From assembly GCF_003185895.1 (NCBI RefSeq), contig NZ_QHLY01000005.1, positions 705,476 to 769,475 of the forward strand: DNA of 64,000 bases, given 5' to 3'. Positions 7,377-32,810 of this stretch are shown here, piece after piece; the first letter of the stretch is position 1, and each line of letters begins with the position of its first letter. This DNA comes from Cryobacterium arcticum (lineage in GTDB: Bacteria > Actinomycetota > Actinomycetes > Actinomycetales > Microbacteriaceae). The position numbers and the translations under genes were made by a program. The notes below the pieces were generated by a model. That model did no database searches. It worked only from the letters and a program-made list of their open reading frames with translations, and had not been told where the DNA came from.

Positions 7377-7382
7377 TCGAGC

Positions 7383-13782: not shown

Positions 13783-14049
13783 TATGGAGCCCTGCTTGGT
13801 AGTTGCTAAAGAAGATGGCTAAAACCGGGTAGTCGAGCTTGTCACTAGCTCTGCAGATCACGAAATTCGTACCGGGACACGCCTCGAGGTCTGGGAGGCG
13901 CAATCATGCATCTCGATCCTAGAACTTGGACCTGTCCTGGGGGATGCCTCCGTGTTAACGTTCTGTTGCCGATCGGCCGGAACGCCGGTCTGGACGCCCC
14001 CAGAACGAGTCGCACGGCGCCGTGACTAATCCCACTATGATCAGACGCC

Positions 14050-14916: not shown

Positions 14917-14983
14917 CGATCTGTCAACAAAACAGTATGAATTGTCCACCCACCTGGATGGCGACGTGGTTACGATCTCTTAG

Positions 14984-15002
14984 GTAGGTATGCCTTACCT
15001 AA
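14984..15002 (-). promoter_or_regulatory. DtxR/IdeR-type iron box
   Basis: Read on the minus strand, TTAGGTAAGGCATACCTAC matches 15 of 19 positions of the DtxR/IdeR consensus TTAGGTTAGGCTAACCTAA. On the plus strand it sits inside a larger TTAGG...CCTAA dyad (14980-15002). It lies 24 bases before the siderophore-binding lipoprotein start and just after a TACGAT element (14971-14976), a position suited to iron-dependent repression. Confidence 0.8.
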
Positions 15003-15026
15003 CTCACGCCTCCGAGAAAGACAACC

Positions 15027-16016: not shown

Positions 16017-16036
16017 GGTTCCCCCGAGCCGCGCCG

Positions 16037-17092: not shown

Positions 17093-18186
17093 CGCCCGAC
17101 GACGGCAGCGGGCGCGCGTCGTTTGTTCTGCGTTCGCCTGAGTTCCAGGCGCCACACCACCGCTCGACGCTCCGCCGCGCGCTGCCCGGGTTCTCGCTGC
17201 GCGTCGACGTGCGGTTGGTGCTGGTGTGCCTGGCCTTGAGCCTCGCCACCGTGGCCGTGTTCCTGGTCGCCCTGAGCGTCGGCGACTACAACATTCCGCT
17301 GGCCGACGTGATCAAGACGCTCACCGGCGGAGGAACGCCGCAGTCCCGGCTGGTCGTCGGCGAGTGGCGGCTGCCGCGGGCGCTGCTGGGCATCGCGATC
17401 GGGGCGGCGCTGGGCATGAGCGGCGCGGTGTTCCAATCCCTCACCCGCAACCCGCTCGGCAGCCCGGACATCATCGGCTTCTCGACCGGGGCGTACACCG
17501 GCGGACTCGTCGTGATCCTGCTCTTCGGCGGCGGGTACCTCCAGACCGCGGCGGGAGCGGTCGGCGGTGGCCTGGCCACTGCGGCGCTTGTCTATGCGCT
17601 CGCCTACCGGCGTGGCATCCAGGGCTTCCGGCTCATCATCGTGGGCATCGGCGTCTCCGCCACTCTCGCATCCGTGAACAGCTGGCTCGTCACCCGGGCG
17701 AACGTCGTCGACGCGATGCAGGCCGCGGTTTGGGGCAGCGGATCCCTGAACGGCCTGGGCTATGACCAGCTCTGGCCCGTGCTCGGCTTGCTCCTGGTCG
17801 TCTCGCCGGTGCTTCTCGCCCACGCGCCGGCCCTGCGGCAGCTCGAACTCGGCGACGATGCCGCCAGGGCCCTGGGCGTGCGGGCCGAGATGGTGCGTCT
17901 GAGTTCCCTGATGTGGGGCATCGTGCTGGTGGCGATCGCCACCGCCGCGGCTGGGCCGATCGCGTTCATCGCGCTGGTCGCACCGCAGATCTCCCGGCGT
18001 CTCACCGGCACGGCGACGCTGGCCCTGCTCCCGGCCGCGGTCGCCGGTGCGCTGCTGCTGCTCGCTTCCGACCTCGTCGCCCAGCGCGCCTTCGCCCCCA
18101 CCCAACTCCCGGTCGGGGTGATGACGGTCATCGTCGGTGGCGCCTACTTCGTCTGGCTGCTCATCCGTGAGGGCCGCCGACAATGA
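17089..18186 (+). CDS. FecCD-family siderophore permease (second subunit)
   Basis: 365-residue permease homologous to the preceding one. Motifs are RLPRALLGIAIGAALGMSGAVFQ, followed by LTRNPLGSPDIIGFSTGA, and AAAGPIAFIALVAPQISRR. The GTG start overlaps the TGA of the upstream gene by four bases (GTGA). A hydrophilic N-terminal tail of about 40 residues precedes the first membrane helix, longer than in its partner. Confidence 0.92.
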   Translation: MTPDDGSGRASFVLRSPEFQAPHHRSTLRRALPGFSLRVDVRLVLVCLALSLATVAVFLVALSVGDYNIPLADVIKTLTGGGTPQSRLVVGEWRLPRALLGIAIGAALGMSGAVFQSLTRNPLGSPDIIGFSTGAYTGGLVVILLFGGGYLQTAAGAVGGGLATAALVYALAYRRGIQGFRLIIVGIGVSATLASVNSWLVTRANVVDAMQAAVWGSGSLNGLGYDQLWPVLGLLLVVSPVLLAHAPALRQLELGDDAARALGVRAEMVRLSSLMWGIVLVAIATAAAGPIAFIALVAPQISRRLTGTATLALLPAAVAGALLLLASDLVAQRAFAPTQLPVGVMTVIVGGAYFVWLLIREGRRQ

Positions 18187-19025
18187 CAGTTCCCGAAAGG
18201 ACCTGCAGCATGCCCGTGACCCCGCCCGCGCACCCCGACTCCCGGTTGCGTGCCGACGACGTCACCATCGGCTACGACAAACGGCCGATCAGCGAGCACC
18301 TCTCGGTGCAGATTCCGGATGGCTCATTCACCGTGATCGTGGGACCGAACGCCTGCGGCAAGTCCACCCTGCTGCGCGGACTCGCCCGGCTGCTGCGCCC
18401 CAGCGCCGGCCAGGTGCTGCTGGACGGCCGCTCGATCACCACCTTCGGCGGTAAGGAGCTCGCCCGCGAAGTGGGGCTGCTGCCGCAGACCTCAGTCGCA
18501 CCCGACGGCATCACGGTTTTCGACCTCGTGGCCCGCGGCCGCTACCCGCATCAGAAGCTGATCCGGCAGTGGTCGCTCGCCGACGAGCGGGCCGTCACGG
18601 GCGCACTCGCCGCCACGAGCACCACCGCCCTGTCCGTGCGTCCGGTCGACGAGTTGTCGGGCGGCCAGCGGCAACGCGTGTGGGTGGCGATGGCCCTGGC
18701 ACAGGAGACACCGATCCTGCTGCTGGATGAGCCCACCACGTTCCTCGACATCGCCCACCAGATCGAGCTGCTCGAGCTGTTCCGGCACCTGCACTCCCAG
18801 GGCCGCACGCTGGTGGCCGTGCTGCACGACCTGAATCACGCCGCCCGGTACGCCACCCACCTGATCGCGATGAAGGACGGCCGTGTCGTGGCCGAAGGCA
18901 CCCCGCGCGAACTGGTCACCGAGGAGCTGGTCGAGGAGGTGTTCGGCTTGCGCTGCCGCGTGATCGACGACCCCGTCGCCGGCTGCCCGCTGGTCATCCC
19001 GCTGGGCACCGCGAGCCTGCCCTGA
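18183..19025 (+). CDS. Siderophore ABC transporter ATP-binding protein (FepC-like)
   Basis: 280-residue ATPase energising siderophore import. Walker A GPNACGKST is at residues 54-62, the signature is LSGGQRQRVWVAMAL, Walker B is ILLLDEPTTFLD, and the H-loop is in VLHDLNHA. ATG 18183 overlaps the permease stop (ATGA) and has GAGG upstream. A second ATG at 18210, behind GAAAGGA, is an equally plausible start and would trim nine residues. Last gene of the iron operon; it converges on the drug-efflux gene. Confidence 0.92.
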   Translation: MTVPERTCSMPVTPPAHPDSRLRADDVTIGYDKRPISEHLSVQIPDGSFTVIVGPNACGKSTLLRGLARLLRPSAGQVLLDGRSITTFGGKELAREVGLLPQTSVAPDGITVFDLVARGRYPHQKLIRQWSLADERAVTGALAATSTTALSVRPVDELSGGQRQRVWVAMALAQETPILLLDEPTTFLDIAHQIELLELFRHLHSQGRTLVAVLHDLNHAARYATHLIAMKDGRVVAEGTPRELVTEELVEEVFGLRCRVIDDPVAGCPLVIPLGTASLP

Positions 19026-19053
19026 GCCAAAGCCCGCGGCCGGTGGTGAACGG

Positions 19054-20547
19054 TCAGTGCGCCATCAGCGGAGCGTCGTGCCCGTCGGTGACCGAGACCG
19101 CGGGCTTGCGGATGAAGAAGGCCAGCGGGATGGCGAACAGGGAGATGATCGCGCCGTAGAGGAACGCGGCCTGGATGCCCGTGGCCGTTGCGGCGACTTC
19201 GCCGGCGCCGGCGGCCATCTGCGTGGCCGCGGTGGAGGACATCACGGTGATGAACAGCGCCGTGCCGGCCGCGCCGGCGAGCTGCTGGGCGGTGCCGACG
19301 ACGGCGCTGCCGTGCGAGTAGAGCCCCGGCCGGAGCGACGCCAGGGCGGAGGTGAACAGCGGCGTGAACAGGAAGGCCAGGCCGAAGCTCAGTGCGACGT
19401 GCGCCACGAGCACCCACCAGAACGGGGTGCTGGCGGTGAGCATGGTCATGAACCAGAACGCGCCGCTCACGATGATCGCACCGGGCACGAGCAGCACGGT
19501 CGGGCCGAACCTGTCGTAGAACCGGCCGACGAAGGGAGAGAGCAGCCCCATAGTGAGACCGCCGGGCAGCAGCAGCAGACCGGTGGTGAGCGCATCCAGG
19601 CCCAGCACGTTCTGCATGTAGATCGGCAGCAGGATCAGGGTGCCGAACAGCGCCATCATGCTCACCACGAGCATCACGATCGACAGGCTGAACGTGCGCG
19701 AGACGAAGGTGCGCAGGTCGAGCAGGGCCCGGTCCCTGCGCTGCAGGGCGAGCTGGCGCCAGACGAACAGGCCGATCGCCACAAGGCCGATGCCCAACGG
19801 AACCAGGCCGGCCGCGGCGCTGCCCGTGGCCGATTCGCCGAGGTTGCTCAGGCCGTAGACGAGCCCGCCGAAGCCGAACGCGGAGAGGATCACCGAGACG
19901 ACGTCGAGCGGCACCTTGGTGGGTGTGGTGACGTTCTTGATGCGTGCGGCACCGAGGGCGAGCGAGCCGAGCGCGATGGGCAGCACCAGGATGAACATCC
20001 AGCGCCAATCGAGCACGCTGAGGATGAGGCCGGAGATGGTGGGACCGATCGCCGGGGCGACCGAGATGACGATGGAGATGTTGCCCATGGTCTTGCCGCG
20101 CGCGGCCGGTGCGACCAGGGTCATCACCGTGGTCATCAGAAGCGGCATCATGATCGCGGTGCCCATGGCCTGCACCACCCGGCCCACGATGAGCACCTCG
20201 AAGCCGGGCGCGATGGCCGCGATCAGGGTGCCGAGGCTGAACAGCGTCATTGCCGCCAGGAAGACCGGGCGGGTGTTGAAGCGCTGCAGCAGGAAGCCGG
20301 TGATGGGGATGACCACGGCCATGGTGAGCATGAACGCGGTGGTCAGCCACTGGGCGGCGCTGGCCGTGATCGACAGGTCGACCATGAGGTGCGGCAGGGC
20401 CACACCCATGATCGTCTCGTTCAGGATGACCACAAACGCCGACACCAGCAGAAGCGAGATGACGAGCTTGGTGCCGGCGGCATCCGGTGCCGTATTGGGC
20501 ACGGCAGCGGTGGGGGCGGTGGTGGTGGCGACGGCGGGGTCGGTCAT
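19054..20547 (-). CDS. DHA2-family MFS transporter (EmrB/QacA type)
   Basis: 497-residue multidrug-type transporter with a 14-segment DHA2 layout. The motif VVILNETIMGVALPHLMVDL in the first helix and AAQWLTTAFMLTMAVVIP in the second are the DHA2 hallmarks. An N-terminal tail of 25 residues rich in Ala, Thr and Pro is probably disordered. I chose ATG 20547, preceded by TTAGGACCC; the open frame continues far upstream only because of GC bias. Drug efflux is the family role; siderophore export is possible given the neighbouring importer (inference). Confidence 0.9.
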   Translation of the reverse strand: MTDPAVATTTAPTAAVPNTAPDAAGTKLVISLLLVSAFVVILNETIMGVALPHLMVDLSITASAAQWLTTAFMLTMAVVIPITGFLLQRFNTRPVFLAAMTLFSLGTLIAAIAPGFEVLIVGRVVQAMGTAIMMPLLMTTVMTLVAPAARGKTMGNISIVISVAPAIGPTISGLILSVLDWRWMFILVLPIALGSLALGAARIKNVTTPTKVPLDVVSVILSAFGFGGLVYGLSNLGESATGSAAAGLVPLGIGLVAIGLFVWRQLALQRRDRALLDLRTFVSRTFSLSIVMLVVSMMALFGTLILLPIYMQNVLGLDALTTGLLLLPGGLTMGLLSPFVGRFYDRFGPTVLLVPGAIIVSGAFWFMTMLTASTPFWWVLVAHVALSFGLAFLFTPLFTSALASLRPGLYSHGSAVVGTAQQLAGAAGTALFITVMSSTAATQMAAGAGEVAATATGIQAAFLYGAIISLFAIPLAFFIRKPAVSVTDGHDAPLMAH

Positions 20548-20620
20548 CAGGGTCCTAACGGAACGGGCGCGGGTGCGATCCCCAGTATGAGGTACCCATG
20601 TTTCAACCAGAATGCGCCGG

Positions 20621-20686
20621 TTCTGTTCCCGAATCGGACAATTGCGTCCGGCGCACTGGGCGCAATCGTCCGATGCGGCGACAGTT
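20621..20686. repeat. 66-bp palindromic intergenic repeat, copy 1
   Basis: Outer arms TTCTGTTCCCG and CGACAGTT, inner arms CGGACAATTGCG and CGCAATCGTCCG, and centre TCCGGCGCACTGGG. Exactly the same length as the copies at 29736, 35301 and 62252. It lies between the divergent efflux and pnuC genes. Confidence 0.85.
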
Positions 20687-20715
20687 GGCTGCGGAGGGGG
20701 CGGGTCGGCGCCTCT

Positions 20716-20721
20716 TAGACT
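20716..20721 (+). promoter_or_regulatory. Candidate leaderless -10 element of pnuC
   Basis: TAGACT ends six bases before the ATG of pnuC. No ribosome site lies between, so the mRNA would begin at the start codon. No clear -35 element is visible. Confidence 0.5.
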
Positions 20722-20727
20722 CGGGGC

Positions 20728-21384
20728 ATGGGGGAATGGCTGGTAGACAACTGGACCGAGGTTCTGGGTTTCGGCACCGGGGCGGCGTGTGTGTGGCTGG
20801 CCGCGCGGCGCAACATCTGGAACTTCCCGATCGGCATCGCGAACAACCTGGTGTTCATCGTGCTGTTCTTCGGCGCCGCGCTCTACGCCGACCTCGGCCT
20901 GCAGATCGTCTACCTGGTGCTCGGCGTGATGGGGTGGTTGGGCTGGTCCCGGCACCGGGCCGCGGACTCCCGCGCCCTGATAACCCGGATGCCCCGCCGC
21001 ACCATCCTGCCGCTGGCCCTGGCCGCCGTGGCCGGCACGGCGATCATCGCCTTCGCCCTGCACTCCTACACCGACTCCACCACCGAGATCGCGGATGCCG
21101 CCACCACCTCGGTCAGCCTGATCGCGCAGTACATGCTCAACCGGCGCTGGCTGGAGAACTGGTTCGTCTGGATCGCGGTCGACGTGACCTACGTAGGGCT
21201 GTTCCTCTATAAGGGGCTGAACATCACCGCGGCGCTCTACCTGCTCTTCATCGGCCTGTGCGTGATCGGCTACCGCGGCTGGGCCCGCGCCCGGGCCCGG
21301 CAGGGCCAGACCGCCGGCCCGGCGGCCGACTCGGCCGCCGCCGGCCACCCCGCCTCGCTCTCTGGTGCCGCCACCGGTGCCTGA
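20728..21384 (+). CDS. pnuC: PnuC-family nicotinamide riboside/mononucleotide transporter
   Basis: 218-residue membrane protein of the PnuC family, which takes up nicotinamide riboside or a related NAD precursor. Membrane segments begin at VLGFGTGAACVWLAAR, and the family motifs NIWNFPIGIANN and QYMLNRRWLENWFVWIAVDV are present; the latter carries the Trp-rich substrate-site segment. The C-terminal 35 residues are Ala/Gly-rich and probably disordered. It overlaps the NadR-like gene by 20 bases, so import and phosphorylation of the precursor are coupled. Confidence 0.93.
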   Translation: MGEWLVDNWTEVLGFGTGAACVWLAARRNIWNFPIGIANNLVFIVLFFGAALYADLGLQIVYLVLGVMGWLGWSRHRAADSRALITRMPRRTILPLALAAVAGTAIIAFALHSYTDSTTEIADAATTSVSLIAQYMLNRRWLENWFVWIAVDVTYVGLFLYKGLNITAALYLLFIGLCVIGYRGWARARARQGQTAGPAADSAAAGHPASLSGAATGA

Positions 21385-22450
21385 GACAACCCCTGACCGG
21401 CACTTCCGGCACGGCCTGGTGCTGGGCAAGTTCTACCCGCTGCACGCCGGGCACTCCAACCTGATCCGCACGGCGCTCAGCCGCTCCGACCGGGTCACCG
21501 TGCAACTGCTCGGCGCGAGCCAGGAATCCATTCCGCTGAGCGTGCGCGAGGAATGGCTCCGCGAGGAGCACCCCACCGCCCGCGTCGTGAGCGCCATCGA
21601 CGACGCCCCGGTCGATTTCGACTCCGCCGACGCCTGGGAGGAGCACATGGTGCCGATCCGGGCGCTGCTCGACGCGCCGGTCGACGCCGTGTTCTCCAGC
21701 GACGCCTACGGCGCCGAGCTCGCCGCCCGTCTCGGCGCCGAATGGGTGCAGGTCGACCCGGGCCGCCGGCACACGCCGGTCTCCGGCACCGCGATCCGGG
21801 CGGATGTGCCCGGGCACTGGTGGGCGCTCGCCCCCGCCGTGCGTGCCTGGTTGACTCCGCGGGTGGTTGTGCTCGGCGCCGAGTCGACCGGCTCCACCAC
21901 CCTCGCTGAGGCGCTCGCCGCTCACTACGGCACCGAGTGGGTGCCGGAATACGGCCGCGAACACAGCGAAACGCGCGCCGGCGGCCTGGAGACCGCCTGG
22001 CGCAGCGACGAGTTCGACCTCATCGTGGACCGGCAGATCGGCTGGGAGGCCGCCGCGCTGCGCCGGGTGCCCCGCCCACTGTTGATCTGCGACACCGACG
22101 TGCTCGCCACCACCCTCTGGCACGACCGCTATGTGGGGCCGGCCCCGGCGCATCTGCTGGCGCGGGCCGCCGCGCATCCGCCGGCGCTGTACCTGCTCAC
22201 CGGCGACGAGATCCCGTTCGTGCAGGACGGCCTGCGCGACGGTGAGCACATCAGGCACGCCATGCAGCAGCGCTTCCGCGACACCCTCGCCGCCCAGCCG
22301 GTGCCCTGGCTCGAGACCACCGGGTCGGTGCCCGACCGGGTGGCCCAGGCATCCGTCGCCATCGACCGCATGCTCGCCGGCCGCTTCAGCTTCGCCCTGC
22401 CGCTGGAACAGCAGGCGGCCCTCTCCCGCTCGGCGCAGCCCGCCCGATAG
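21365..22450 (+). CDS. nadR: NadR-like NMN adenylyltransferase/ribosylnicotinamide kinase
   Basis: 361-residue two-domain enzyme of NAD salvage. The N-terminal nucleotidyltransferase domain has GKFYPLHAGH (HxGH at 27-30) and the later motif SGTAIR. The C-terminal kinase domain starts near residue 167 with VVLGAESTGSTTL. In E. coli NadR the P-loop contains the lysine of GKS; here the corresponding residue is Ser177. The N-terminal helix-turn-helix of enterobacterial NadR is absent. GTG 21365 or GTG 21377 could be the start. Kinase activity is therefore less certain than adenylyltransferase activity. Confidence 0.88.
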   Translation: MPPPVPETTPDRHFRHGLVLGKFYPLHAGHSNLIRTALSRSDRVTVQLLGASQESIPLSVREEWLREEHPTARVVSAIDDAPVDFDSADAWEEHMVPIRALLDAPVDAVFSSDAYGAELAARLGAEWVQVDPGRRHTPVSGTAIRADVPGHWWALAPAVRAWLTPRVVVLGAESTGSTTLAEALAAHYGTEWVPEYGREHSETRAGGLETAWRSDEFDLIVDRQIGWEAAALRRVPRPLLICDTDVLATTLWHDRYVGPAPAHLLARAAAHPPALYLLTGDEIPFVQDGLRDGEHIRHAMQQRFRDTLAAQPVPWLETTGSVPDRVAQASVAIDRMLAGRFSFALPLEQQAALSRSAQPAR

Positions 22451-22453
22451 GCT
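22448..22453 (+). promoter_or_regulatory. Candidate internal leaderless -10 element before the MoxR gene
   Basis: TAGGCT lies seven bases before ATG 22461, and its first three bases are the nadR stop codon. It could give the five-gene MoxR operon its own leaderless transcript. No ribosome site is visible for the MoxR gene. Confidence 0.4.
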
Positions 22454-22460
22454 GCCAACC

Positions 22461-24038
22461 ATGGCGCAGGGGAATCGTTGGAACAAGGTATCCGCATCAC
22501 CGACGCGCACGAACGGCGCCACCCTGCCGGAAGAGCTGACCGCGGAGGACCTCTTCACCGAGGCGCCCGCCGTGGCCGATACTGCCCTGGATGAGAAGCT
22601 CCGGCAGGCCTACTTCTGGCTGGTCAACCGCGCCGTGATCTCACCGTTCTACGACGTCGAGTTCTCCGCCGGCTCGCCCGTCACGTTCGCCCTCGGCGAC
22701 GCCGGCGCCGAACTGAACCTGCCCACCGACCAGTCCTACTCGTCGAACGTGCTGCTGCCGCTGCTCACCTTCGCTGTTGGCGGCCGGTGCCTGCTGGTGG
22801 GCGGGCCGGGCCGCGGCAAGACCACCCTGGCCATCCTGATGGGCGTGCTCGCCGGGTCGAGCCCGCGCGAGGTGCGCCGCAACGTGCAACAGGGCCAGCC
22901 GCAGATCACCGTGAGCGACCTGGTGGGAATGCCGTTGCCGCGCGACCTCGTCACCGCCGGCAGCCTGGCCGAGATCGAGATCGCCTGGCGGAGCTGGCTC
23001 ACCCAGCCGGTGAAGATCATCGACGAGTACAACCGCATCCCCACCAAGACCCAGTCGGCGCTGCTCACCATGGTGGCCGAGGGTTACGTGGAGAGCCACG
23101 ATCAGATGCACTCCACCGCACCGGAGTCCGGGGTGGAGAGCTGGTTCTTCACCGCCAACGACGATGCCGGCGGCGGTACCTTCCCGGTGATCCAGGCGTT
23201 GCGTGACCGGATGGATGTCACCGTCGCCGCGCAGGGCTTCAACAACCGGTTCTTCGACGAGCTCGTCGCCCGGGTCGAGGCCGGCGAACGGCCCGAGGAC
23301 CACCTGCCCGCCGAACTCGTCTTCGGCCCAGACGAACAACGCCTGCTCGAGGCCGCCATCCGCGCGGTGCCGCTGCCCGGTGCCGTTCGCCGCCAGCTCG
23401 AATTCTTCGCCAGCCACTTCGAGTTCGTGCAGCAGGGCGGCCGCCGGTTCGAGTACCGCACCAAGGACACCGTGCGCACCGGCGGCGGTGAGGTGGCCGA
23501 GACGATCGAGGCCAACTCCGGCGCCGACCTGCAGGTGGACCTGGGCTCGCAGACCACCAACAGCCTCTCAGTGCGGTCGCTGCAAACCCTCATCCGCTAC
23601 GCCAAGGCCATGGCCTACTTCCGCGGCCGGCCCGTGGTGGGGCTGGACGACCTGGCCGCTGTGCTGCCGTTCGCCCTGCGCGGCAAGCTGCTGCCCAACG
23701 AGCTGCACCCCCGGTTCGACGTGGGCGCCGACCGGGAGCTGGCCACCGATTCGATCAGCTGGCTCGCCGACCTCTTCGCGGAGTCCCGCCGCCAGTTCAC
23801 CGCCCTCGGCCTGGCCGCCAGCGACCCCATCAGTGACGCGCTCGACCTGTTCAACCAGGGCCTGGACGGTGTCACCTCCGCGCAGGCCGCCTCCCGGCTC
23901 ACCGGCATCGAATCCCTGATCAGCGGCATCGCCAAGCAGGGCAAGCTCTACGGCCGGCACTTCGACGACCTGCTGGCCCTCAAATACCTGCACCAGCGGT
24001 ACACCAATTACGTGAGCTGGCTGGGGTTCAGCGGGTGA
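22461..24038 (+). CDS. MoxR-type AAA+ ATPase
   Basis: 525-residue ATPase of the MoxR branch. Walker A is GGPGRGKTT (residues 114-122), Walker B is KIIDEYNRIP (Asp188, Glu189), and a sensor-1-like FFTANDD follows at 229-235. The MoxR family works as a chaperone or remodelling ring, usually with a VWA-domain partner, and one is encoded two genes downstream. The protein is longer than typical MoxR proteins (about 320-350), with an N-terminal extension of about 90 residues and a long C-terminal helical part. First gene of a tightly overlapping five-gene operon. Confidence 0.88.
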   Translation: MAQGNRWNKVSASPTRTNGATLPEELTAEDLFTEAPAVADTALDEKLRQAYFWLVNRAVISPFYDVEFSAGSPVTFALGDAGAELNLPTDQSYSSNVLLPLLTFAVGGRCLLVGGPGRGKTTLAILMGVLAGSSPREVRRNVQQGQPQITVSDLVGMPLPRDLVTAGSLAEIEIAWRSWLTQPVKIIDEYNRIPTKTQSALLTMVAEGYVESHDQMHSTAPESGVESWFFTANDDAGGGTFPVIQALRDRMDVTVAAQGFNNRFFDELVARVEAGERPEDHLPAELVFGPDEQRLLEAAIRAVPLPGAVRRQLEFFASHFEFVQQGGRRFEYRTKDTVRTGGGEVAETIEANSGADLQVDLGSQTTNSLSVRSLQTLIRYAKAMAYFRGRPVVGLDDLAAVLPFALRGKLLPNELHPRFDVGADRELATDSISWLADLFAESRRQFTALGLAASDPISDALDLFNQGLDGVTSAQAASRLTGIESLISGIAKQGKLYGRHFDDLLALKYLHQRYTNYVSWLGFSG

Positions 24039-24808
24039 CCCAGCGCCCGCTGCACGTGGTCAACGCCGGCCTGGAGCTCACCGACGAGCCCCTGCCCGAG
24101 GTTCCCGAGCTCGACCTGGCGCTGTCCCTCTCCCGCATCGAGGCGCTGCACGGCGCGGCGGCCGGGGCGCGCTACCGGCACTTCCTCGGCCGCGCCCTCG
24201 CCGCGCAGCCCGGCGGCGACCGGGACGATCTGCTCACCCTCGCGACCCTCGCCGCCTGGCGGGCCGGAGCGGTCGCGTTCCGCACGGATGCGCTGCGCCG
24301 GCTCGACGCCGCCCTGGCCACCGACACCGTGCGCATCCCCACCCTCGCCGCGGCCCTCGGCCTGCCCGAGCACTCCGTGGCGGCGTTCGCGGAGCTGCAG
24401 CGGGGCAGCCGGTTCGGCTGGCCGGACCTTGTCGCCGGTGGCCTGGTCGCTGTCGTCGGCGGGTTCCGCGGCCTGTTCGGACCCTGGCTGACCCCGGCCG
24501 TCGCCGTGCTGGCCGGCGACCGGCCGGGCACGTTCCTGATCCGCACGGCCGCCAGCCGCTCCGGCACCGCCCCGGCGGGCGCCGACGAGTCCACCGGCTC
24601 CGGCGACGCCTGGCTGCTCACGGTCGACGTCTTCGGCCACACTCTCACCCGGTTGGTGCCCGAGGAGACCGGCTCGCATCCGCTCGCCGCCCGCTGGGCG
24701 GAGGCGGGCCTCTCGAGCTCGAGTCCGGACGAGGCCGGCGCCCCCGGGGCGACGCTGCAGCTCGCCGGGTACACCGCGTACCTGCGCCTGCCGGAGGTCG
24801 CAGCGTGA
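24035..24808 (+). CDS. Hypothetical protein of the MoxR/VWA operon
   Basis: 257 residues; I do not recognise a domain. It starts with GTG overlapping the MoxR stop (GTGA), and its own stop overlaps the next gene in the same way. The first 120 residues look helical and Leu/Ala-rich. Near residue 125 there is a Gly/Ala-rich hydrophobic stretch (LVAGGLVAVVGGFRGLFG), too glycine-rich to call a membrane helix with confidence. No cysteines or catalytic signatures stand out. The position between ATPase and VWA protein suggests an adaptor or third complex subunit (inference). Confidence 0.75.
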   Translation: MTQRPLHVVNAGLELTDEPLPEVPELDLALSLSRIEALHGAAAGARYRHFLGRALAAQPGGDRDDLLTLATLAAWRAGAVAFRTDALRRLDAALATDTVRIPTLAAALGLPEHSVAAFAELQRGSRFGWPDLVAGGLVAVVGGFRGLFGPWLTPAVAVLAGDRPGTFLIRTAASRSGTAPAGADESTGSGDAWLLTVDVFGHTLTRLVPEETGSHPLAARWAEAGLSSSSPDEAGAPGATLQLAGYTAYLRLPEVAA

Positions 24809-26805
24809 GGCGTGGCGCGCCCGCGGTTCTCTCGCCGGAGCAGCGCACGGCCTGGCTGGCCGCGCAGCGACTCTGGGGCGTCGAACTGCACGATCCGGAG
24901 CTGGCCCCGAACGCGAAGGCGCCCTCGTTCGCCTGGTTCGCCTTTCCGCCGCAGGTCACGTTCGACCTGCCAGAGGCCAGCCGGCTGGGCGTCGGTGACT
25001 TTCTGGAAAGCATCTTCGCGCACGAGATCGGACACCACGCCCTCTCGCCGTCGACCCGCATCACCGGCCTCAAGATCGCCCACCAGCTGGCCCGGGCGCT
25101 GGCGGCCACGGACGCCCAACGCATCCCCAAGCCGGAAGACCAGGTTCACCAGCTCTCCAACCTGTGGTCGGACCTGCTGATCAACGTGCGCGTGGCCGAA
25201 CTGCAACGCCGCCGCGACGCGACCGGTGCCGCGCCGGAGATGGTGCGGATGTGGCAGGTCCTGGCCTGGCGCGGCGGCAGCGACCGGATGTGGTGGGTGG
25301 TGCTGCGCGCCTACGAGATGCTCTGGACGCTGCCGGCCGGCACGCTCTGCCCGGCCGACCCGCCCGCCGAGGAAATCGACCACGTGGAAGCGGAGCGGCG
25401 CGAGACCGCGAGGCGCGGTGCCGCCAGGCAGAAGGAGCTCGACATCGCCGCCGCCGTCGCCGCCGGAAATACGAGGCTCGTCGACGAGCTCGAACAGCAG
25501 GACTCGCTCGAGGTGCAGATCGAGTTCGACGCTCTGGCTCGCACGAATCCGGAGCTGGATTCCGCTCTGCTGGCCGAGACCGTGCGCGCGTTCGGGGACG
25601 ACCCGGTGAGCGGGGCGCTCCGGTTCGGCATGCTGATGGCCCCGTATTTGGTGCGGCCGGGCCTGCCGACGCCGACCACCCGCACGGTGGGCATCGTGCG
25701 CGCGGGCCTCTGCGCCGGTGAATCGGGCGCCACTGCTGCGACCGCCGGTGACCTAGTCGCCGTGCTCGGCGACGCCCGCCTGCAGGAAGCCCCCGAGCAT
25801 CCGGCTGTGGTCAAGGCACGTGCCTTCGCCGAACGCGCGCACAGCGCCGGAGCGGTGCTCAAGGCCGCCGCCAGTGCCGGCGCCCAGGGCGCGACCGGCC
25901 AGGGGTATGGCCTGGCCAACACCCTGCGGCTGTATCACGACAGCGACGCGAACGCCGTGATCGCTGCCTGGTACCAGACCCGGGCGCGGAGCTATGTGCG
26001 CCCGCTCCTGCAACGCTCGAGAACCGCCGCCGTGTCTGGCTCGGAAATTCCCGGCGCGCTGGAGACATGGGAGCTGGGCGACGACCTCGCCGACATCGAC
26101 TGGGCGGCCTCGATGGCGCGCGGCACCACCATCGTTCCCGGCGTCACCACCCGTCGGAGAGAGTACCTGCCCGACATCCCCCCGGTCGCGCCGATCAGCG
26201 TGGACCTCGACCTCTACATCGACTCCTCCGGCTCCATGACCAGCCCCGCCCGGGAATCCCCGGCCGTGCTGGCCGGCAGCATCCTCATTCTCTCGGTGCT
26301 GCGCGGCGGTGGCCGGGTGCGGGTCACCTCGTTCTCGGCCGCCGGGCAGGTGGCCGGCGGGGAACGGTTCACCCGCGATCGCCTCGAGGCGCTGCGCGAC
26401 CTCACCACATACTTCGGTAGCGGCACCGTGTTCCCGCTGGACCTGTACGGCGCACGCTACCGCGGTGTCACCGCAGCAACGGCGACGGTCGGCATCGAGG
26501 TGCGCCGGCACGTTGTGGTGCTGTCCGATGAGGGCCTGCTGTCGATGTTCGGCGCCGGCCAGCCCCAGTTCGCCGATGTCGCCGGCCAAGTGCGCCGCAC
26601 CCTGGATTCGGCCACGTTGATTCTGCAGGACTCCCGGCATTCGGTGGCCGAGCCCGCGGCCGCGGCCGGCTACGACGTGGAATACATCCAATACATGACC
26701 GACGCCCCGGCAGCATGCGCCCGGCTGGCTCGCCGGTTGGCCACTTCGCGGCCCGCCACCGCGGCAGCACGCCGGGCCCGAACCCGAGGAGGCTTCCATG
26801 GCTGA
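24805..26805 (+). CDS. Putative HEIGH metallopeptidase-VWA domain protein
   Basis: 666 residues combining two recognisable sites. FAHEIGHHAL at residues 71-80 is an HExxH zinc-peptidase motif (His73, Glu74, His77). DLDLYIDSSGSM ends in a VWA metal-ion site DxSxS (Asp473, Ser475, Ser477), with a later Asp575 in VVLSDEG. The central part is helical and charged, with a candidate coiled coil near residues 190-235. This resembles the DUF2201-type combination of putative metallopeptidase and VWA-like domains that accompanies MoxR ATPases; I cannot confirm membership. Peptidase activity is unproven. Confidence 0.82.
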   Translation: MRRGAPAVLSPEQRTAWLAAQRLWGVELHDPELAPNAKAPSFAWFAFPPQVTFDLPEASRLGVGDFLESIFAHEIGHHALSPSTRITGLKIAHQLARALAATDAQRIPKPEDQVHQLSNLWSDLLINVRVAELQRRRDATGAAPEMVRMWQVLAWRGGSDRMWWVVLRAYEMLWTLPAGTLCPADPPAEEIDHVEAERRETARRGAARQKELDIAAAVAAGNTRLVDELEQQDSLEVQIEFDALARTNPELDSALLAETVRAFGDDPVSGALRFGMLMAPYLVRPGLPTPTTRTVGIVRAGLCAGESGATAATAGDLVAVLGDARLQEAPEHPAVVKARAFAERAHSAGAVLKAAASAGAQGATGQGYGLANTLRLYHDSDANAVIAAWYQTRARSYVRPLLQRSRTAAVSGSEIPGALETWELGDDLADIDWAASMARGTTIVPGVTTRRREYLPDIPPVAPISVDLDLYIDSSGSMTSPARESPAVLAGSILILSVLRGGGRVRVTSFSAAGQVAGGERFTRDRLEALRDLTTYFGSGTVFPLDLYGARYRGVTAATATVGIEVRRHVVVLSDEGLLSMFGAGQPQFADVAGQVRRTLDSATLILQDSRHSVAEPAAAAGYDVEYIQYMTDAPAACARLARRLATSRPATAAARRARTRGGFHG

Positions 26806-27709
26806 CGCCAAAGTGCCGTTCTGGCGCCGGCTCGCGGAGGCGGCGGGCCTGACCGATGGGCAGCTGAGCAGCGGAATCCCGATGACGCCCGGCGCTCCGC
26901 CCACTCCGCCATCCCCGTCGCCCGCATCCCCTCCGCCGAGCGCCGCCGGGCCCGCCCCGGCTGCGGCCCGGCCGGCACCCTCCCCTCGAGCCGCCACCTC
27001 TGCTGCCCCGCCGGCGCAGGCCGACGATGAAAGCCTGGCCTCCGGACCGGGCGGGGAAGCCCTGCTCGAGCTCTGGTTCGCCCGCGCCGAAGACGATCTC
27101 GTGGCTTGGCGGCAGTGCCTGCCGGGGCCCAGCGCTGCCGAAATCGGCACCAGGCTTTCCCTCGTGCCCAAGACATTCCTCGACGACGATGTCGCCGTGC
27201 TGCGGCTCGCCGAGCATATTCTCGAACCGGAATACGGTGCGGCTCCTGACACGAGTGCTGACAGGCACGCCCGCGAGATCCTGGCCGTCGTCGACCAGGC
27301 CAGGGCCACCGGTTCCAGCGCCGCCCGCCGCGCCGCCGCGCTTGTGCTCTGGCTCTGGGCCAGCGACGACCTCCACGGGCCGTTGTCGGTGCCGCTGCGA
27401 CCGGTGCTGCGCGACCGTGCGATGGCGGCGATGGCCTTCCGGCTGGCCGCCGTGGTCGATCCGGCCGAGTGGGTGAGCGACGCCGTGCACCGTGACGAAG
27501 CCGCGCGGACCTTTTTGTTCTGGTCCGGGCACCTCCCCGCCGGAGAGGACGAGGCCGCGGCCCGGTCGCTGCTCTCGATGCGTGACTCGCTGCTGCAGAA
27601 CGCCGCGCTGGCGCAGACCCTCGCCGATCACGAACACCGCCTCGAGGTCACCCGTCGGCTGCAGGCGGCGCGGGCCCGCGAAGCCGCGGCCCGGTACTCC
27701 CATGAGTGA
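26798..27709 (+). CDS. Hypothetical protein with proline-rich N-terminal region
   Basis: 303 residues, no family recognised. After a short amphipathic start (VPFWRRLAEAAGL), residues about 29-75 are Pro/Ala/Ser-rich and surely disordered. From about 80 on it is helical, with several Trp residues (VLWLWASDDL) and a charged C-terminal helix (EHRLEVTRRLQAARAREAAARY) that could form a coiled coil. It overlaps both neighbours by eight bases, so it belongs to the same coupled operon. A linker or scaffold role is only a guess. Confidence 0.75.
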   Translation: MADAKVPFWRRLAEAAGLTDGQLSSGIPMTPGAPPTPPSPSPASPPPSAAGPAPAAARPAPSPRAATSAAPPAQADDESLASGPGGEALLELWFARAEDDLVAWRQCLPGPSAAEIGTRLSLVPKTFLDDDVAVLRLAEHILEPEYGAAPDTSADRHAREILAVVDQARATGSSAARRAAALVLWLWASDDLHGPLSVPLRPVLRDRAMAAMAFRLAAVVDPAEWVSDAVHRDEAARTFLFWSGHLPAGEDEAAARSLLSMRDSLLQNAALAQTLADHEHRLEVTRRLQAARAREAAARYSHE

Positions 27710-29099
27710 TCGCGCCGACAACGTCGTAACCGCACCCGCCGTCGCCGACCCCGATGACCCGCTCGCGCTGGCCGAATACGCCCCGGGCGGCGCCGTCGCA
27801 CTCACCGATGCCGAACGCTGGCCCACCCTCGACACGGCCGGCGCCGAACGACTGCGCCGGGTGCGCCACCATCCGCTCGCCCCCGCCTGGGTGCACCAAA
27901 CCGGCGACCGCCTGAGCGCCGACGCCGTGCACCGGGTGCAACAACCGCTCCCGCTGCCGGGTTGGCTGGACGAGCACCTCGCCACGGCCAGACGCTTGCC
28001 GGCCTACCGCCGCCAAGCGGATCGGCTACGCGACCTGGCGAGCTGGCCCACCCTCACCCGGGACGACCTGCTCGACGACATCTCAGCGTTCGTGCCGCTC
28101 GACGCCGACCTCGGTCGCCTGATCGAGGGCTCGAGTTCGGGCACCACCGGCCGGGCGCTACAGATTCCCGACGACGTCGAGGAGGTCGCCCGCACCTTCC
28201 ACCTCTTGGTGCGCCTGGTGACCGAGCAGGGAATCGACTGGCAGCCCGACCCCGACCGGATGGCGCTGGCCTACGTCGTGCACCAGCGCCAGGCCTTCAC
28301 CTACACCTCGTCTATTAGCAGTTTCGGCCAGGCCACAATGGCCCGGCTGAACCTGCACCCGTCCCAGTGGCCGCACGCCGGGCAGCGGACCGGGTTCCTG
28401 TTGGCGCAGCAGCCGCAGGTGATCACCGGCAATCCCACCAGCCTGGCCGAGCTGTTGCAGCCCGAGCTGGTGGCGGGGCTCCGCCCACTGGCGCTGTTCA
28501 GCGGCGCGATGGCACTCAGCCTGCCGCTCCGCCGTGACCTCGAGCAGGCATATGCCTGCCCGGTTATCGATGTCTACGGGTTGCACGAAACCCGCCCGAT
28601 CGCGGCCAGCGTCGACGGCGGGCCGTTCGTGATCCTGGATCGCCGGCTGCACGTGGAGGTGCTCGACGACGCCGGCACACCCGTGCCGGCGGGGGAGCGC
28701 GGCGAGATCACCGTCACGGCGGGGGAGAACCCGCTGCTTCCGCTGGTGCGGTATCGCACCGGCGACTTCGGCCGGCTCGTGCACGTGGCCGGCCGCCCCG
28801 CACTGGCCGACCTGGAGGGCCGCGAGGCCACCCGATTCGTGGCGCCCGCCGGCACCCTGGTGCCCTGCGTCGACCTCACCCAACATCTGCAGGCCGGCGG
28901 TGCGCGCGGTTGGTCCGTGCACCAGGCCGCCGACGGGGCGGTGGCCGCAACCGTGGTGGGCGGTGACTCCGGGCAGATCCGTGCGGCACTGGAGCAGCTG
29001 CTCTCGCGGCCCGTCGCGGTGACAGCGGTGGCGACCCTCCTCGAGCTCGGCGAGGGCAAGCCGCGGCGTTACCGGTCGGACGCGCCGGGCGTACTCTGA
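27702..29099 (+). CDS. Stand-alone adenylate-forming enzyme (PaaK/CapK-like)
   Basis: 465 residues of the ANL superfamily, which activate a carboxylate with ATP. Signature motifs are all present: the phosphate loop SSSGTTG (144-150), YGLHET (292-297), YRTGDFGRL near 350, and a C-terminal GEGKPRRYRSD with a candidate catalytic lysine. The form is closest to phenylacetate-CoA-ligase or CapK-like enzymes. No carrier protein, CoA-pathway gene or peptide-synthetase gene is nearby. Last gene of the MoxR/VWA operon; substrate and acceptor unknown. Confidence 0.82.
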   Translation: MSDRADNVVTAPAVADPDDPLALAEYAPGGAVALTDAERWPTLDTAGAERLRRVRHHPLAPAWVHQTGDRLSADAVHRVQQPLPLPGWLDEHLATARRLPAYRRQADRLRDLASWPTLTRDDLLDDISAFVPLDADLGRLIEGSSSGTTGRALQIPDDVEEVARTFHLLVRLVTEQGIDWQPDPDRMALAYVVHQRQAFTYTSSISSFGQATMARLNLHPSQWPHAGQRTGFLLAQQPQVITGNPTSLAELLQPELVAGLRPLALFSGAMALSLPLRRDLEQAYACPVIDVYGLHETRPIAASVDGGPFVILDRRLHVEVLDDAGTPVPAGERGEITVTAGENPLLPLVRYRTGDFGRLVHVAGRPALADLEGREATRFVAPAGTLVPCVDLTQHLQAGGARGWSVHQAADGAVAATVVGGDSGQIRAALEQLLSRPVAVTAVATLLELGEGKPRRYRSDAPGVL

Positions 29100-29188
29100 C
29101 GCTTCGGCAACATGTCGCACGGATGCGAATGGCAGTGTGTGTACGAACAATGGCAGTCGAATTCCGCCAGCGGGCAGGGTGATTTCCC

Positions 29189-29194
29189 TAGGCT
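29189..29194 (+). promoter_or_regulatory. Candidate leaderless -10 element of the DinB-family gene
   Basis: TAGGCT ends six bases before ATG 29201, with no ribosome site between. The same hexamer precedes the MoxR gene. Confidence 0.5.
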
Positions 29195-29200
29195 GTGGCC

Positions 29201-29719
29201 ATGCCGATCACACCCGACACCAAAGACTGGACCTGGGTGCTCGAGCGCCCGTGCACGGAATGCGGTTTCTCCTCCGCCGACGTGGTCTACGACGATGTTC
29301 CCGACCTGGTCCGACGGAATGCCGCAGCCTGGGCGCCGGTTCTCGCCCGAGCGGATGTTTCCGTGCGACCCGATGAGAACACCTGGTCCGCACTGGAATA
29401 CGGCGCGCACGTACGAGACGTGTTCCGGATCTTCAACACCCGGCTGGGCCTGATGCTGCGCGAGGACGACCCCCTGTTCGCCAACTGGGACCAGGACGCC
29501 ACCGCGGCCGCCGAGCGCTACAACGAGCAGGACCCGGCCACCGTGGCGACTGAGTTGGCCGCGGCCGGGGTGTCCGTCGCCGACGCGTTCGCCGCCGTGC
29601 CGCGGGTTGACCGGGGGCGTACCGGCCGCCGCAGCGACGGCGCCAGGTTCACCGTCACGACCCTGGCCCAGTACTTCATCCACGATCCGGTGCACCACCT
29701 GCACGACGTGGCCGGCTGA
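29201..29719 (+). CDS. DinB-family protein
   Basis: 172-residue four-helix-bundle protein of the DinB/YfiT superfamily, in actinobacteria often a mycothiol- or metal-dependent enzyme. The start TKDWTWVLERPCTECGF has a CxxC pair and is typical of one actinobacterial DinB subgroup. HDPVHHLHDV near the C-terminus supplies His residues for metal binding. ATG 29201 is preferred over GTG 29195, which overlaps the putative transcription start. Exact activity unknown. It stands alone, downstream of the MoxR operon. Confidence 0.82.
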   Translation: MPITPDTKDWTWVLERPCTECGFSSADVVYDDVPDLVRRNAAAWAPVLARADVSVRPDENTWSALEYGAHVRDVFRIFNTRLGLMLREDDPLFANWDQDATAAAERYNEQDPATVATELAAAGVSVADAFAAVPRVDRGRTGRRSDGARFTVTTLAQYFIHDPVHHLHDVAG

Positions 29720-29735
29720 CCCGACCCGAGCCCGC

Positions 29736-29801
29736 ACCTGTTCCCCGTGCGGACAAGTGCGCCCGGCGCACCGGCCGCAGAAGTCCGAAGCGGCCGCAGT
29801 T
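29736..29801. repeat. 66-bp palindromic intergenic repeat, copy 2
   Basis: Same length and layout as copies 1, 3 and 4: ACCTGTTCCCC on the left, CGGACAAGTGCG and CGCAGAAGTCCG as inner arms, and GCAGTT on the right. It lies between the DinB-family gene and licT. Confidence 0.85.
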
Positions 29802-29852
29802 GGACGGGGTCGGCCGGGCGAAATCGGCCAGCAACCGCGCTACCCGAGCCTG

Positions 29853-29858
29853 TACACT
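29853..29858 (+). promoter_or_regulatory. Candidate leaderless -10 element of licT
   Basis: TACACT ends seven bases before ATG 29866. The intervening GCCCCCT is not a ribosome site. Confidence 0.5.
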
Positions 29859-29865
29859 GCCCCCT

Positions 29866-30753
29866 ATGGCGACGGATAGCGATGTGGCGCGCGCGGCGGG
29901 CGTGATTGCGCACAAGGTACTCAACAACAACGTCGTCATTTCCATCGATCAGTCCGGTCAGGAGCGCGTGCTCATGGGCCGCGGTCTGGGCTTCAAGCTG
30001 CAGCCCACCGACACCATCGACCCGGCCAAGGTCGAGAAGACGTTCATCCTGGATCAGGGCAGCGAAGCGGACCACGCCCGCCAGTTGCTCGCCTCCGTGC
30101 CTTACCCGGTGATCGAAGCCGTCAACCGCGCCGTGGACGAAGCCGAACGCGCACTGGGCCGCAGTCTCGGGCGCAGGTTCCTCATCGCGGTCATCGACCA
30201 CGTGCAATATGTCCTGGAGCGCATGGAACAGGGCATCCGTATTCCCACCACGACAATGCCCGAGCTTCGGGTGCTACACCCGCAGGAGTTTGCCGCGGCG
30301 ACCGCGATGGCCCTGTCGGTCAGCCGCAGCCTGGACACCACCCTGCCCGAGGAAGAAGCCGTATTCCTCACGATGCATCTGTTGAACGCCACCCGGGATG
30401 AACCCAACGGCACGGCAGCGCTGCTCTTTCGACGGGTGCAGCACGTCGTCACGACGGTGGAAAGTGGGCTCGGGGTTCAGCTGGATCCGGCCAGCCCGGA
30501 CTACGCCCGGTTCATCCTGCATGTGCAGTTCCTGCTGCAGCGATTGGTCGCCAAGTCGATGCTGCGCGGCTCCGACACGTCGTTCTTCGAGTTCGCCAAA
30601 CTGAGCTATCCGCGCTCCTACGCGATCGCGGCCGACGTCAAGTCTTACGTCAATGCCGCCACGGGGTCTGAACTCACCGACGAAGAACTGCTCTACGTGA
30701 TCGTGCACGTCGAGCGGCTGGCCAACCAAGTTGTGGATGGCGGCACCGCATAA
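29866..30753 (+). CDS. licT: BglG/LicT-family transcriptional antiterminator
   Basis: 295-residue RNA-binding antiterminator. The N-terminal co-antiterminator domain (residues about 10-65) has VLNNNVVISID and MGRGLGF. Two PTS-regulation domains follow, with conserved phosphorylation histidines in IDHVQYV and FLTMHLLNA (first) and FILHVQFLL and VIVHVERL (second). When beta-glucosides are taken up, dephosphorylation by EII lets such proteins bind the RAT and prevent termination. The matching RAT lies 53 bases downstream, ahead of the PTS gene. Confidence 0.94.
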   Translation: MATDSDVARAAGVIAHKVLNNNVVISIDQSGQERVLMGRGLGFKLQPTDTIDPAKVEKTFILDQGSEADHARQLLASVPYPVIEAVNRAVDEAERALGRSLGRRFLIAVIDHVQYVLERMEQGIRIPTTTMPELRVLHPQEFAAATAMALSVSRSLDTTLPEEEAVFLTMHLLNATRDEPNGTAALLFRRVQHVVTTVESGLGVQLDPASPDYARFILHVQFLLQRLVAKSMLRGSDTSFFEFAKLSYPRSYAIAADVKSYVNAATGSELTDEELLYVIVHVERLANQVVDGGTA

Positions 30754-30805
30754 GCGTGTGCTATCGTGATCGACGCAGGGCGAGGACGACCTGCGAAGCA
30801 CTCAC

Positions 30806-30835
30806 GGATTGTTACCGCGCAAGCGGGCAAAACCT
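30806..30835 (+). promoter_or_regulatory. RAT: ribonucleic antiterminator of the first beta-glucoside operon
   Basis: GGATTGTTACCGCGCAAGCG begins a 30-base element ending GGCAAAACCT. It matches the LicT/BglG RAT pattern (GGATTGTTACTG...CAGGCAAAACC) almost base for base; the apical stem is CCGC/GCGG with loop GCAA. Its last four bases are the first arm of the terminator at 30832, so RAT and terminator are mutually exclusive. Confidence 0.92.
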
Positions 30836-30881
30836 GAATTCCCACCGCCGACAGCGGTGAACGGATTCAGGTCTTTTTTTT
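30832..30881 (+). terminator. Intrinsic terminator controlled by the RAT
   Basis: ACCTGAAT (30832-30839) pairs with ATTCAGGT (30865-30872), enclosing an inner stem CACCGC/GCGGTG, and is followed by TC and eight T residues. It lies about 70 bases before the PTS start, so the operon is off unless LicT binds the RAT. Confidence 0.92.
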
Positions 30882-30914
30882 GCCCAAAAACCCGTGCAGC
30901 GCTTCTTTTCGTGA

Positions 30915-32810
<1,896 letters not shown>

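What the first reader, a model, noticed from the sequence alone, without database searches (positions are those of the whole stretch)
22461..29099. Five-gene operon: MoxR ATPase, unknown, HEIGH-VWA protein, proline-rich unknown, adenylate-forming enzyme
Seen: five genes on one strand overlapping by 4, 4, 8 and 8 bases, encoding Walker A/B AAA+, HExxH plus VWA DxSxS, and full ANL motifs. Known: MoxR ATPases often pair with VWA proteins as remodelling machines, and putative metallopeptidase/VWA-like proteins accompany some of them. Not known to me: such a pair linked to two unrecognised subunits and a carboxylate-activating enzyme. Inference: the ATPase and VWA protein may open or load a client while the ANL enzyme activates a small acid for transfer or ligation; a conflict or self-modification system is also possible.
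Basis: partly seen in the sequence, partly recalled or inferred. Interest (0 to 1): 0.8.

Follow-up and report, generated by a model that had tools for sequence, protein, structure and literature searches.

The report
MoxR-ligase operon tied to NAD salvage
In a scattered set of actinobacteria, five neighbouring genes for a molecular motor, its partner proteins and an acid-activating enzyme travel together, often right behind the genes that turn a vitamin B3 compound into NAD, which suggests an undescribed protein machine connected to NAD metabolism.

Summary
In detail: five same-strand genes overlap by 4, 4, 8 and 8 nt. They are not chance neighbours. All 9 other family genomes with the VWA gene keep the five-gene order. 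Of the 80 best named loci, 71 have all five in order, one scrambled, six are cut by contig ends, two lack a g2 hit. A g5 ortholog was absent from 27 operon-free genomes.

Elsewhere nadR is usually in the same genome: by my count 40 of 42 g1/g3-positive genomes carry it, against 6 of 239, 31 of 391 and 9 of 93 negative ones. Two mycobacteria break the rule.

Best reading: a NorQD-like MoxR/VWA remodelling machine with its own adenylate-forming enzyme, coupled to NAD salvage. Client and acid are unknown. No held paper combined these parts in the searches made.

The parts
20728..21384 (+). pnuC, nicotinamide riboside/NMN-type importer (PF04973), first gene of the wider unit
   Evidence: Pfam 186.2 bits vs cut-off 27.3; pnuC and nadR both upstream of g1 in 54 of 80 named loci
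21365..22450 (+). nadR-like NMN adenylyltransferase / ribosylnicotinamide kinase; ends 10 nt before g1 (start codon uncertain)
   Evidence: TIGR01526 180.6 bits over residues 15-319, below its cut-off of 341.15; PF13521 above cut-off; GKFYPLHAGH motif present; kinase P-loop lysine replaced by serine
22461..24038 (+). g1, MoxR-class AAA+ ATPase (Walker A GGPGRGKT, Walker B region DEYNR)
   Evidence: PF07726 and PF17863 above cut-off; both motifs invariant in 11 of 11
24035..24808 (+). g2, unknown two-domain subunit: helical N-terminal half, beta-rich C-terminal half with a conserved VGGFRGL-GPW stretch
   Evidence: no Pfam/NCBIfam family; AlphaFold model pLDDT 90.4; no Foldseek match at E 0.001
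24805..26805 (+). g3, HExxH (HEIGHH) zincin-like N-terminal region plus C-terminal VWA with complete MIDAS
   Evidence: H73 E74 H77 H78 and D473 S475 S477 T541 D575 invariant in 28 of 28; weak M48 and VWA_2 hits in some orthologs
26798..27709 (+). g4, unknown all-helical subunit with a long C-terminal helix; disordered Pro-rich N-terminus in the window copy
   Evidence: AlphaFold model pLDDT 83.9, ordered from about residue 84; no Foldseek match at E 0.001
27702..29099 (+). g5, PaaK-like ANL adenylate-forming enzyme
   Evidence: PF00501 above cut-off; best solved relatives are PaaK-type ligases, 2y4o E 6.4e-20; RYRTxD invariant, K453 in at least 90% of 41

Best explanation
A conserved actinobacterial machine made of a MoxR-class AAA+ ring (g1), a VWA/zincin-like adaptor (g3), two dedicated subunits (g2, g4) and a PaaK-like adenylate-forming enzyme (g5), often co-expressed with nicotinamide riboside uptake and NAD synthesis (PnuC, NadR). 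Shown by sequence: the parts, their order, their intact catalytic and metal-site motifs, and the statistical link to nadR. Inferred: g1-g3 work as NorQ-NorD do, with the VWA protein docking a client through its MIDAS and the ATPase twisting it open; g5, tethered by g4, activates a carboxylic acid with ATP and hands it to the client or to a ligand that the ring loads or removes; the client or ligand depends on pyridine nucleotides, which is why NadR is kept in the same genome.
For: Five-gene order in 9 of 9 further family genomes and 71 of 80 named loci (7 of the 80 are the same loci as in the family set). Pairwise distances of g1-g4 track g5 (r 0.89-0.93, 71 loci) and those of adjacent nadR track g1, g3 and g5 (r 0.87-0.92, 48 loci). 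No g5 ortholog in 27 of 27 operon-free genomes. nadR in 10 of 10 g3-positive vs 6 of 239 g3-negative family genomes (only 2 of the 6 are intact pnuC-nadR pairs); Fisher 3e-16 on intact pairs, 6e-8 by genus. In one search, 28 of 28 operon genomes had nadR, 22 of them with an operon not next to it. NadA was found in 19 of 21 operon-bearing and 13 of 15 operon-free genomes, so this is not simply vitamin auxotrophy. NorQ/NorD remodelling with an essential MIDAS: PMC9976466 (passages) and PMC13036017 (abstract).
Against: 2 of 5 g1-positive mycobacteria in a 98-genome sample lack nadR at E 1e-30; their operon sits behind genes that read as sdhCDAB. 26 of the 80 named loci were not scored as having both pnuC and nadR upstream; only two of these (L094, L126) start near a contig edge. 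nadR is common without the operon (31 of 391 in the class sample). The correlated distances may be plain vertical descent, and related genomes are not independent. No substrate, client or complex was shown; the acid for g5 is unknown. g2 and g4 matched no known fold, so nothing ties them to a role.
Confidence: 0.4

Rival explanations
1. A MoxR/VWA maturation chaperone for a respiratory or dehydrogenase complex, like RavA-ViaA or CoxDE; the pnuC-nadR neighbourhood is an ancestral arrangement of little functional meaning.
For: Upstream partners vary: genes reading as sdhCDAB in two mycobacteria, a membrane-protein gene that by eye looks like an ABC-type exporter part in five Pseudonocardiaceae-type loci, other genes elsewhere. 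RavA-ViaA acts on fumarate reductase and CoxD-CoxE in metal-cluster insertion (PMC7159879 passages), NorQD on nitric oxide reductase (PMC9976466 passages).
Against: nadR is present elsewhere in 22 of 22 tested genomes whose operon is not next to it, and is rare in operon-free family genomes. Among the 30 largest neighbour clusters listed the two largest are pnuC and nadR; the others were not annotated by profile, so a recurring respiratory gene is not excluded.
Confidence: 0.27
2. A conflict or stress-response system: the motor and zincin act as a trigger, g5 makes an effector molecule, and PnuC-NadR refills NAD after damage.
For: Patchy distribution among relatives (g1 in 3 of 394 in the class, g3 in 10 of 249 in the family); MoxR-vWA pairs do organise conflict systems in actinobacteria (PMC7159879 passages).
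Against: PADLOC scan of six proteins gives only weak hits, best E 0.02; the gene set is constant, without swapped effectors; no match to g1 in viral contigs or g3 in plasmids. Flanking genes other than nadR were not scanned for defence families.
Confidence: 0.12
3. A dedicated uptake-and-use route for an environmental pyridine compound: PnuC imports it, NadR phosphorylates/adenylates it, g5 activates its acid form, and the AAA+ part assembles the enzyme.
For: Operon order with pnuC and nadR first; both NadR and g5 are adenylyl-transfer enzymes by family.
Against: PnuC and NadR resemble those of operon-free genomes; no catabolic enzyme was recognised beside the operon, though neighbours were not profiled systematically.
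Confidence: 0.12
4. Chance adjacency of unrelated genes.
Against: Conserved order and overlaps over many families; g5 not found apart in 27 genomes.
Confidence: 0.01

Closest known systems
NorQ-NorD, CbbQ-CbbO, RavA-ViaA, CoxD-CoxE MoxR/VWA pairs
   Same: MoxR-class ATPase encoded with a VWA protein that has a MIDAS
   Different: g3 carries an HExxH motif; three extra constant genes, one an ANL enzyme; often joined to pnuC-nadR
MoxR-vWA ternary conflict systems (Kaur et al. 2020, PMC7159879; passages seen)
   Same: MoxR plus vWA core with further partners, in actinobacteria
   Different: No swapped effectors; the words NadR, PnuC, AMP-ligase and acyl-CoA do not occur in that text; only one g3 ortholog of 28 shows a weak fvmX3 hit (E 0.063)
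PaaK-type phenylacetate-CoA ligases and the DVU_1553 family
   Same: g5 shares ANL core motifs; best HMM and PDB matches
   Different: Far below both equivalog cut-offs (37.8 of 646.3; 72.8 of 300 bits), so the substrate should not be copied over
NadR/PnuC nicotinamide riboside salvage
   Same: The two upstream genes belong to these families
   Different: No held paper names NadR, PnuC and MoxR together (0 papers)
MoxR/VWA pairs of other actinobacterial families (L046-L048)
   Same: g1- and g3-like pair, segments 24-37% identical
   Different: No g2, g4 or g5 by HMM in these three loci

Membership tests
MoxR AAA+ ATPases | AAA_3 core with lid domain, Walker A and B | tested here: met
   PF07726 28.5 of 27 bits, PF17863 28.2 of 22.7; motifs invariant in 11 of 11
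MoxR AAA+ ATPases | Partner VWA protein with intact MIDAS in the same operon | tested here: met
   DxSxS, T and D invariant in 28 of 28 g3 sequences
MoxR AAA+ ATPases | Hexameric ring that remodels a client | not testable with these tools
   needs biochemistry or structure of the complex
Zincin metallopeptidases (M48-like) | HExxH motif | tested here: met
   HExGHH invariant in 28 of 28
Zincin metallopeptidases (M48-like) | Family-level profile match | tested here: inconclusive
   PF01435 in 12 of 28 orthologs at E up to 5, best 2.4e-4; none for the window protein
ANL adenylate-forming enzymes | AMP-binding domain with P-loop, YRTGD and C-terminal lysine | tested here: met
   PF00501 32.2 of 29.9 bits; motif columns. 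Motif roles are recalled
Phenylacetate-CoA ligase PaaK (TIGR02155) | Equivalog score cut-off | tested here: not met
   37.8 of 646.3 bits
DVU_1553 family CoA ligase (NF045666) | Equivalog score cut-off | tested here: not met
   72.8 of 300 bits
MoxR-vWA ternary conflict systems | VMAP, iSTAND, FtsH or beta-propeller third component | tested here: inconclusive
   No Pfam family in g2 or g4; one weak fvmX3 hit among 28 g3 orthologs
MoxR-vWA ternary conflict systems | Hypervariable effector modules | tested here: not met
   Same five genes in order in 71 of 80 loci
Known anti-phage defence systems (PADLOC 2.0) | Profile match of core proteins | tested here: inconclusive
   Six proteins scanned, only weak hits, best E 0.02
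NadR (TIGR01526) | Equivalog-domain cut-off | tested here: not met
   180.6 of 341.15 bits although residues 15-319 align
NadR (TIGR01526) | Kinase P-loop lysine (recalled as canonical) | tested here: not met
   Serine in the window; S or T in 54 of 55 named loci with a nadR hit, one not covered
PnuC (PF04973) | Pfam cut-off and transmembrane character | tested here: met
   186.2 of 27.3 bits; 29 hydrophobic windows

The most novel reading that the evidence does not exclude
The seven genes build and load a new pyridine-nucleotide-derived ligand or cofactor: NadR-made NMN/NAD, or an acid derived from it, is adenylated by g5 on g4, and the g1-g3 AAA+/VWA/zincin engine inserts it into a client enzyme. 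This would be an ANL-equipped MoxR loading machine and a second NAD-derived cofactor route beside the nickel-pincer one (recalled).
Probability: 0.12. Interest if true: 0.9.

Novelty: new variant of a known kind. Interest (0 to 1): 0.62.

Why it matters
MoxR/VWA pairs are widespread but few clients are known (recalled). Here is a pair with a constant set of partners, including a catalytic enzyme whose substrate can be screened, and with a genome-wide link to a defined pathway. That turns 'MoxR of unknown function' into a testable question: which acid does g5 activate, and what does the machine do with nicotinamide riboside or NAD? It would also give a context to gene families that Pfam and NCBIfam leave unnamed here (g2, g3, g4).

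Tried and rejected
Chance adjacency: rejected. NR auxotrophy as the reason for nadR: NadA, the only de novo gene tested, was found in 32 of 36 genomes; it was missing from 2 of 21 operon-bearing (G558, G608) and 2 of 15 operon-free ones (G491, G411). A NadR kinase-site change tied to the operon: the P-loop lysine is S or T in operon-linked nadR, but also in 18 of 20 full-length nadR read from genomes without a detected operon (one K, one A), and one operon-bearing genome (G162) has K, so it is a group trait. Conserved g4 C-terminus (SHE) as a target of g5: the last residues are partly dictated by the ATGAGTGA-type overlap with g5 and differ where the overlap differs. Riboswitch upstream: nothing in Rfam for 14000-32000 beyond a chance miRNA hit at E 0.94. 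Promoter/terminator scan: no sigma-70-like promoter; 4 terminator-like sites against 2.4 expected. Fold searches: g2 and g4 had no Foldseek match at E 0.001; VIA gave Z up to 8.3 for g2's beta half against WD-repeat domains and 4.5 for g4; by the tool's notes such values may mean only a common arrangement. Viral contigs (g1) and plasmids (g3): no relative.

Papers: eight searches, seen as listings. 0 papers for NadR+PnuC+MoxR (46), MoxR+phenylacetate-CoA ligase+VWA (47), MoxR+NAD+adenylate-forming+von Willebrand (62); one search gave one gut-microbiome paper, two NAD papers and three papers unrelated by title, none opened. Most subscription papers are not in that library.

Limits: g1 defines presence, g3; the five genes were not checked one by one in G991 and G984. 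L073 has the genes scrambled and was left out of order and distance counts. Start codons were chosen nearest to a 4-nt overlap, so the overlap tally leans towards it. The locus titled Rhodococcus rhodnii (L109) is almost identical to Kibdelosporangium aridum and may be mislabelled. Paired samples (17/45, 53/54, 85/86) are taken as the same genomes because sizes and handles agree; only 85/86 are listed in full.
Full report
What is there. The finding's five genes are real and where stated: g1 22461-24038, g2 24035-24808, g3 24805-26805, g4 26798-27709, g5 27702-29099, with overlaps of 4, 4, 8 and 8 nt. Pfam supports a MoxR-type AAA+ ATPase for g1 and an AMP-binding (ANL) enzyme for g5; g2, g3 and g4 match no family, and NCBIfam's best names for g5, DVU_1553-like and PaaK, are far below cut-off.

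It is a conserved unit. A g3 search found it in 10 of 249 family genomes including its own. All nine others carry g1, g3, g4 and g5 in the same order. g2 lies in its place too: by tblastn in seven of nine, in L041 by HMM, and in L043 as a matching ORF that is itself in the HMM. One genome of another family (L045) has the same layout; there g2 was not found by HMM, only by eye, and aligns at 23% identity. In a phylum-wide g3 search 18 of 396 genomes had a hit: the own copy, L045's genome and 16 weaker ones; the three of these read (L046-L048) have g1- and g3-like genes but no g2, g4 or g5 by HMM. A scan of named species genomes with the g1 alignment gave 445 relatives at tblastn E 1e-3; the 80 best are all actinobacterial by title. 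Profile HMMs find all five genes in 72 of these 80, in order in 71. Six misses are contigs that end early; L120 also ends early and lacks a g2 hit, and L127 lacks a g2 hit. Seven of the 80 are the same loci as in the family set. The distances of g1-g4 correlate with those of g5 (r 0.89 to 0.93 over 71 loci), as for genes that move as a block, though vertical descent alone could give this. A g5 profile finds no ortholog in 27 genomes in which the g1 or g3 searches had found no operon: the own copy scores E 5.5e-220, the next best hit 1.4e-24.

The front of the operon. Just upstream, on the same strand, lie pnuC (20728-21384) and nadR (21365-22450), the latter ending 10 nt before g1. Both are upstream of g1 on the same strand in 54 of the 80 named loci, in Microbacteriaceae, Nocardioidaceae, Demequinaceae, Intrasporangiaceae, Dermacoccaceae, Cellulomonadaceae, Promicromonosporaceae, Sanguibacteraceae, Ruaniaceae, Allobogoriellaceae and two mycobacteria (names). 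In 52 of the 54 nadR lies within 300 nt of g1; in two Oerskovia loci it is about 3.4 kb away, with a gene resembling a P-type ATPase between. On the g1 tree adjacency needs seven changes, at least one of them an artefact of a contig edge (L126), and the tool flagged long branches (FastTree).

The link holds in trans. In one sample of 249 family genomes, nadR was found in all 10 g3-positive genomes and in 6 of 239 others. In five of the ten it is not next to the operon but belongs to a separate pnuC-nadR pair. Of the six others, two (G414, G585) have an intact pair, one (G491) is broken and three have only a kinase-like protein. Fisher's test gives 3e-16 on intact pairs and 6e-8 by genus; related genomes are not independent. 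Of 28 operon genomes picked by locus, 22 of them without adjacency, all 28 carry nadR, the weakest being G162 at E 9.9e-52 and 38% identity. In a class-wide sample g1 is in 3 of 394 and nadR in 34 of 394, and all three g1 genomes have nadR adjacent by coordinates. Counter-evidence: among 98 mycobacteria, g1 is in 5 and nadR in 12, overlapping in 3; G1089 and G1106 have the complete operon but no nadR at E 1e-30, and there it follows genes that read as sdhCDAB, in L204 with a 22 nt gap (sdh names from reading the ORFs, not from a profile search). That sample alone gives p 0.012. In 28 other Pseudonocardiaceae-group genomes nadR is in 5; how many of these carry the operon is unknown because the matching g1 search could not be run. 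By my count, taking G659 and G564 as one genome, 40 of 42 distinct g1- or g3-positive genomes have nadR. The relation is one-way: nadR often occurs without the operon.

Anatomy. g1 has invariant Walker motifs in 11 of 11. g3 has HExGHH, then N119, D123, N127 and R129, and a full MIDAS, all invariant in 28 of 28; Pfam gives weak Peptidase_M48 hits in 12 of 28 and VWA_2 in 5 of 28, and no solved structure matched by sequence. g5 keeps the catalytic ANL motifs and is nearest to PaaK-type structures. g2 is predicted with confidence (pLDDT 90) as a helical half plus a beta half, and g4 (pLDDT 84) as helical with a disordered start; neither has a significant fold match. A simple hydropathy scan shows no clear membrane segment in g2-g5; g1 has three windows just above threshold.

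How it may work. From NorQ-NorD work (PMC9976466, passages read; PMC13036017, abstract), a MoxR ring drives a VWA adaptor whose MIDAS is needed for client function. By analogy g1-g3 remodel a client. The new elements are a built-in acid-activating enzyme and a strong though not absolute tie to NadR. My reading is that g5, on g4, makes an activated acyl group or ligand, and that the client or ligand is tied to NAD(P) or NMN. NadA is present in most genomes with or without the operon, so the need is not mere vitamin auxotrophy. The client, the acid and the direction (loading or stripping) are inferred and unknown.

Compared with known systems. It works like a MoxR/VWA pair, and g1 and g3 meet the tested features of one. 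It is not shown to be a member of the MoxR-vWA conflict systems: their hallmark of variable effectors is not met, the third component test is inconclusive, and the text of Kaur et al. 2020 has no NadR, PnuC, acyl-CoA or AMP-ligase. g5 is not PaaK by score. Paper searches with the combined terms returned nothing; only open-licence papers are held. I therefore file it as a new variant of a known kind, with the NAD-salvage link as its surprising feature.

Noticed in passing
window 21365-22450, and nadR in L038-L203: NadR kinase P-loop reads GAESTG(S/T)TTL instead of GAESTGKTTL in the window and in most actinobacterial full-length nadR read, with or without the operon (18 of 20 without; K kept in G162 and G839); whether the kinase still works is open.
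   Followed up: partly
L204 (about 4400-8030) and L205: In two mycobacteria the five-gene operon follows what read as succinate dehydrogenase genes, with a 22 nt gap in L204.
   Followed up: partly
L152 (G491): Broken pnuC-nadR remnants in a genome without the operon and without a NadA match.
   Followed up: no
L046, L047, L048: Distant MoxR/HExxH-VWA pairs in other actinobacterial families without g2, g4 or g5; neighbouring 281-300 aa genes in L046 and L047 match no Pfam family.
   Followed up: no
window 29800-32810: BglG-type antiterminator (PRD, CAT_RBD) followed by a beta-glucoside PTS IIABC gene.
   Followed up: no
window 15027-19025: Lipoprotein-like binding protein and ABC genes resembling an iron-siderophore importer (binding protein judged by eye; ABC ATPase by Pfam).
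   Followed up: no
L073: Mycolicibacterium houstonense copy has the five genes scrambled or in pieces, possibly an assembly effect.
   Followed up: no
L109: Contig titled Rhodococcus rhodnii carries a g1 almost identical to Kibdelosporangium aridum, so the label is doubtful.
   Followed up: no
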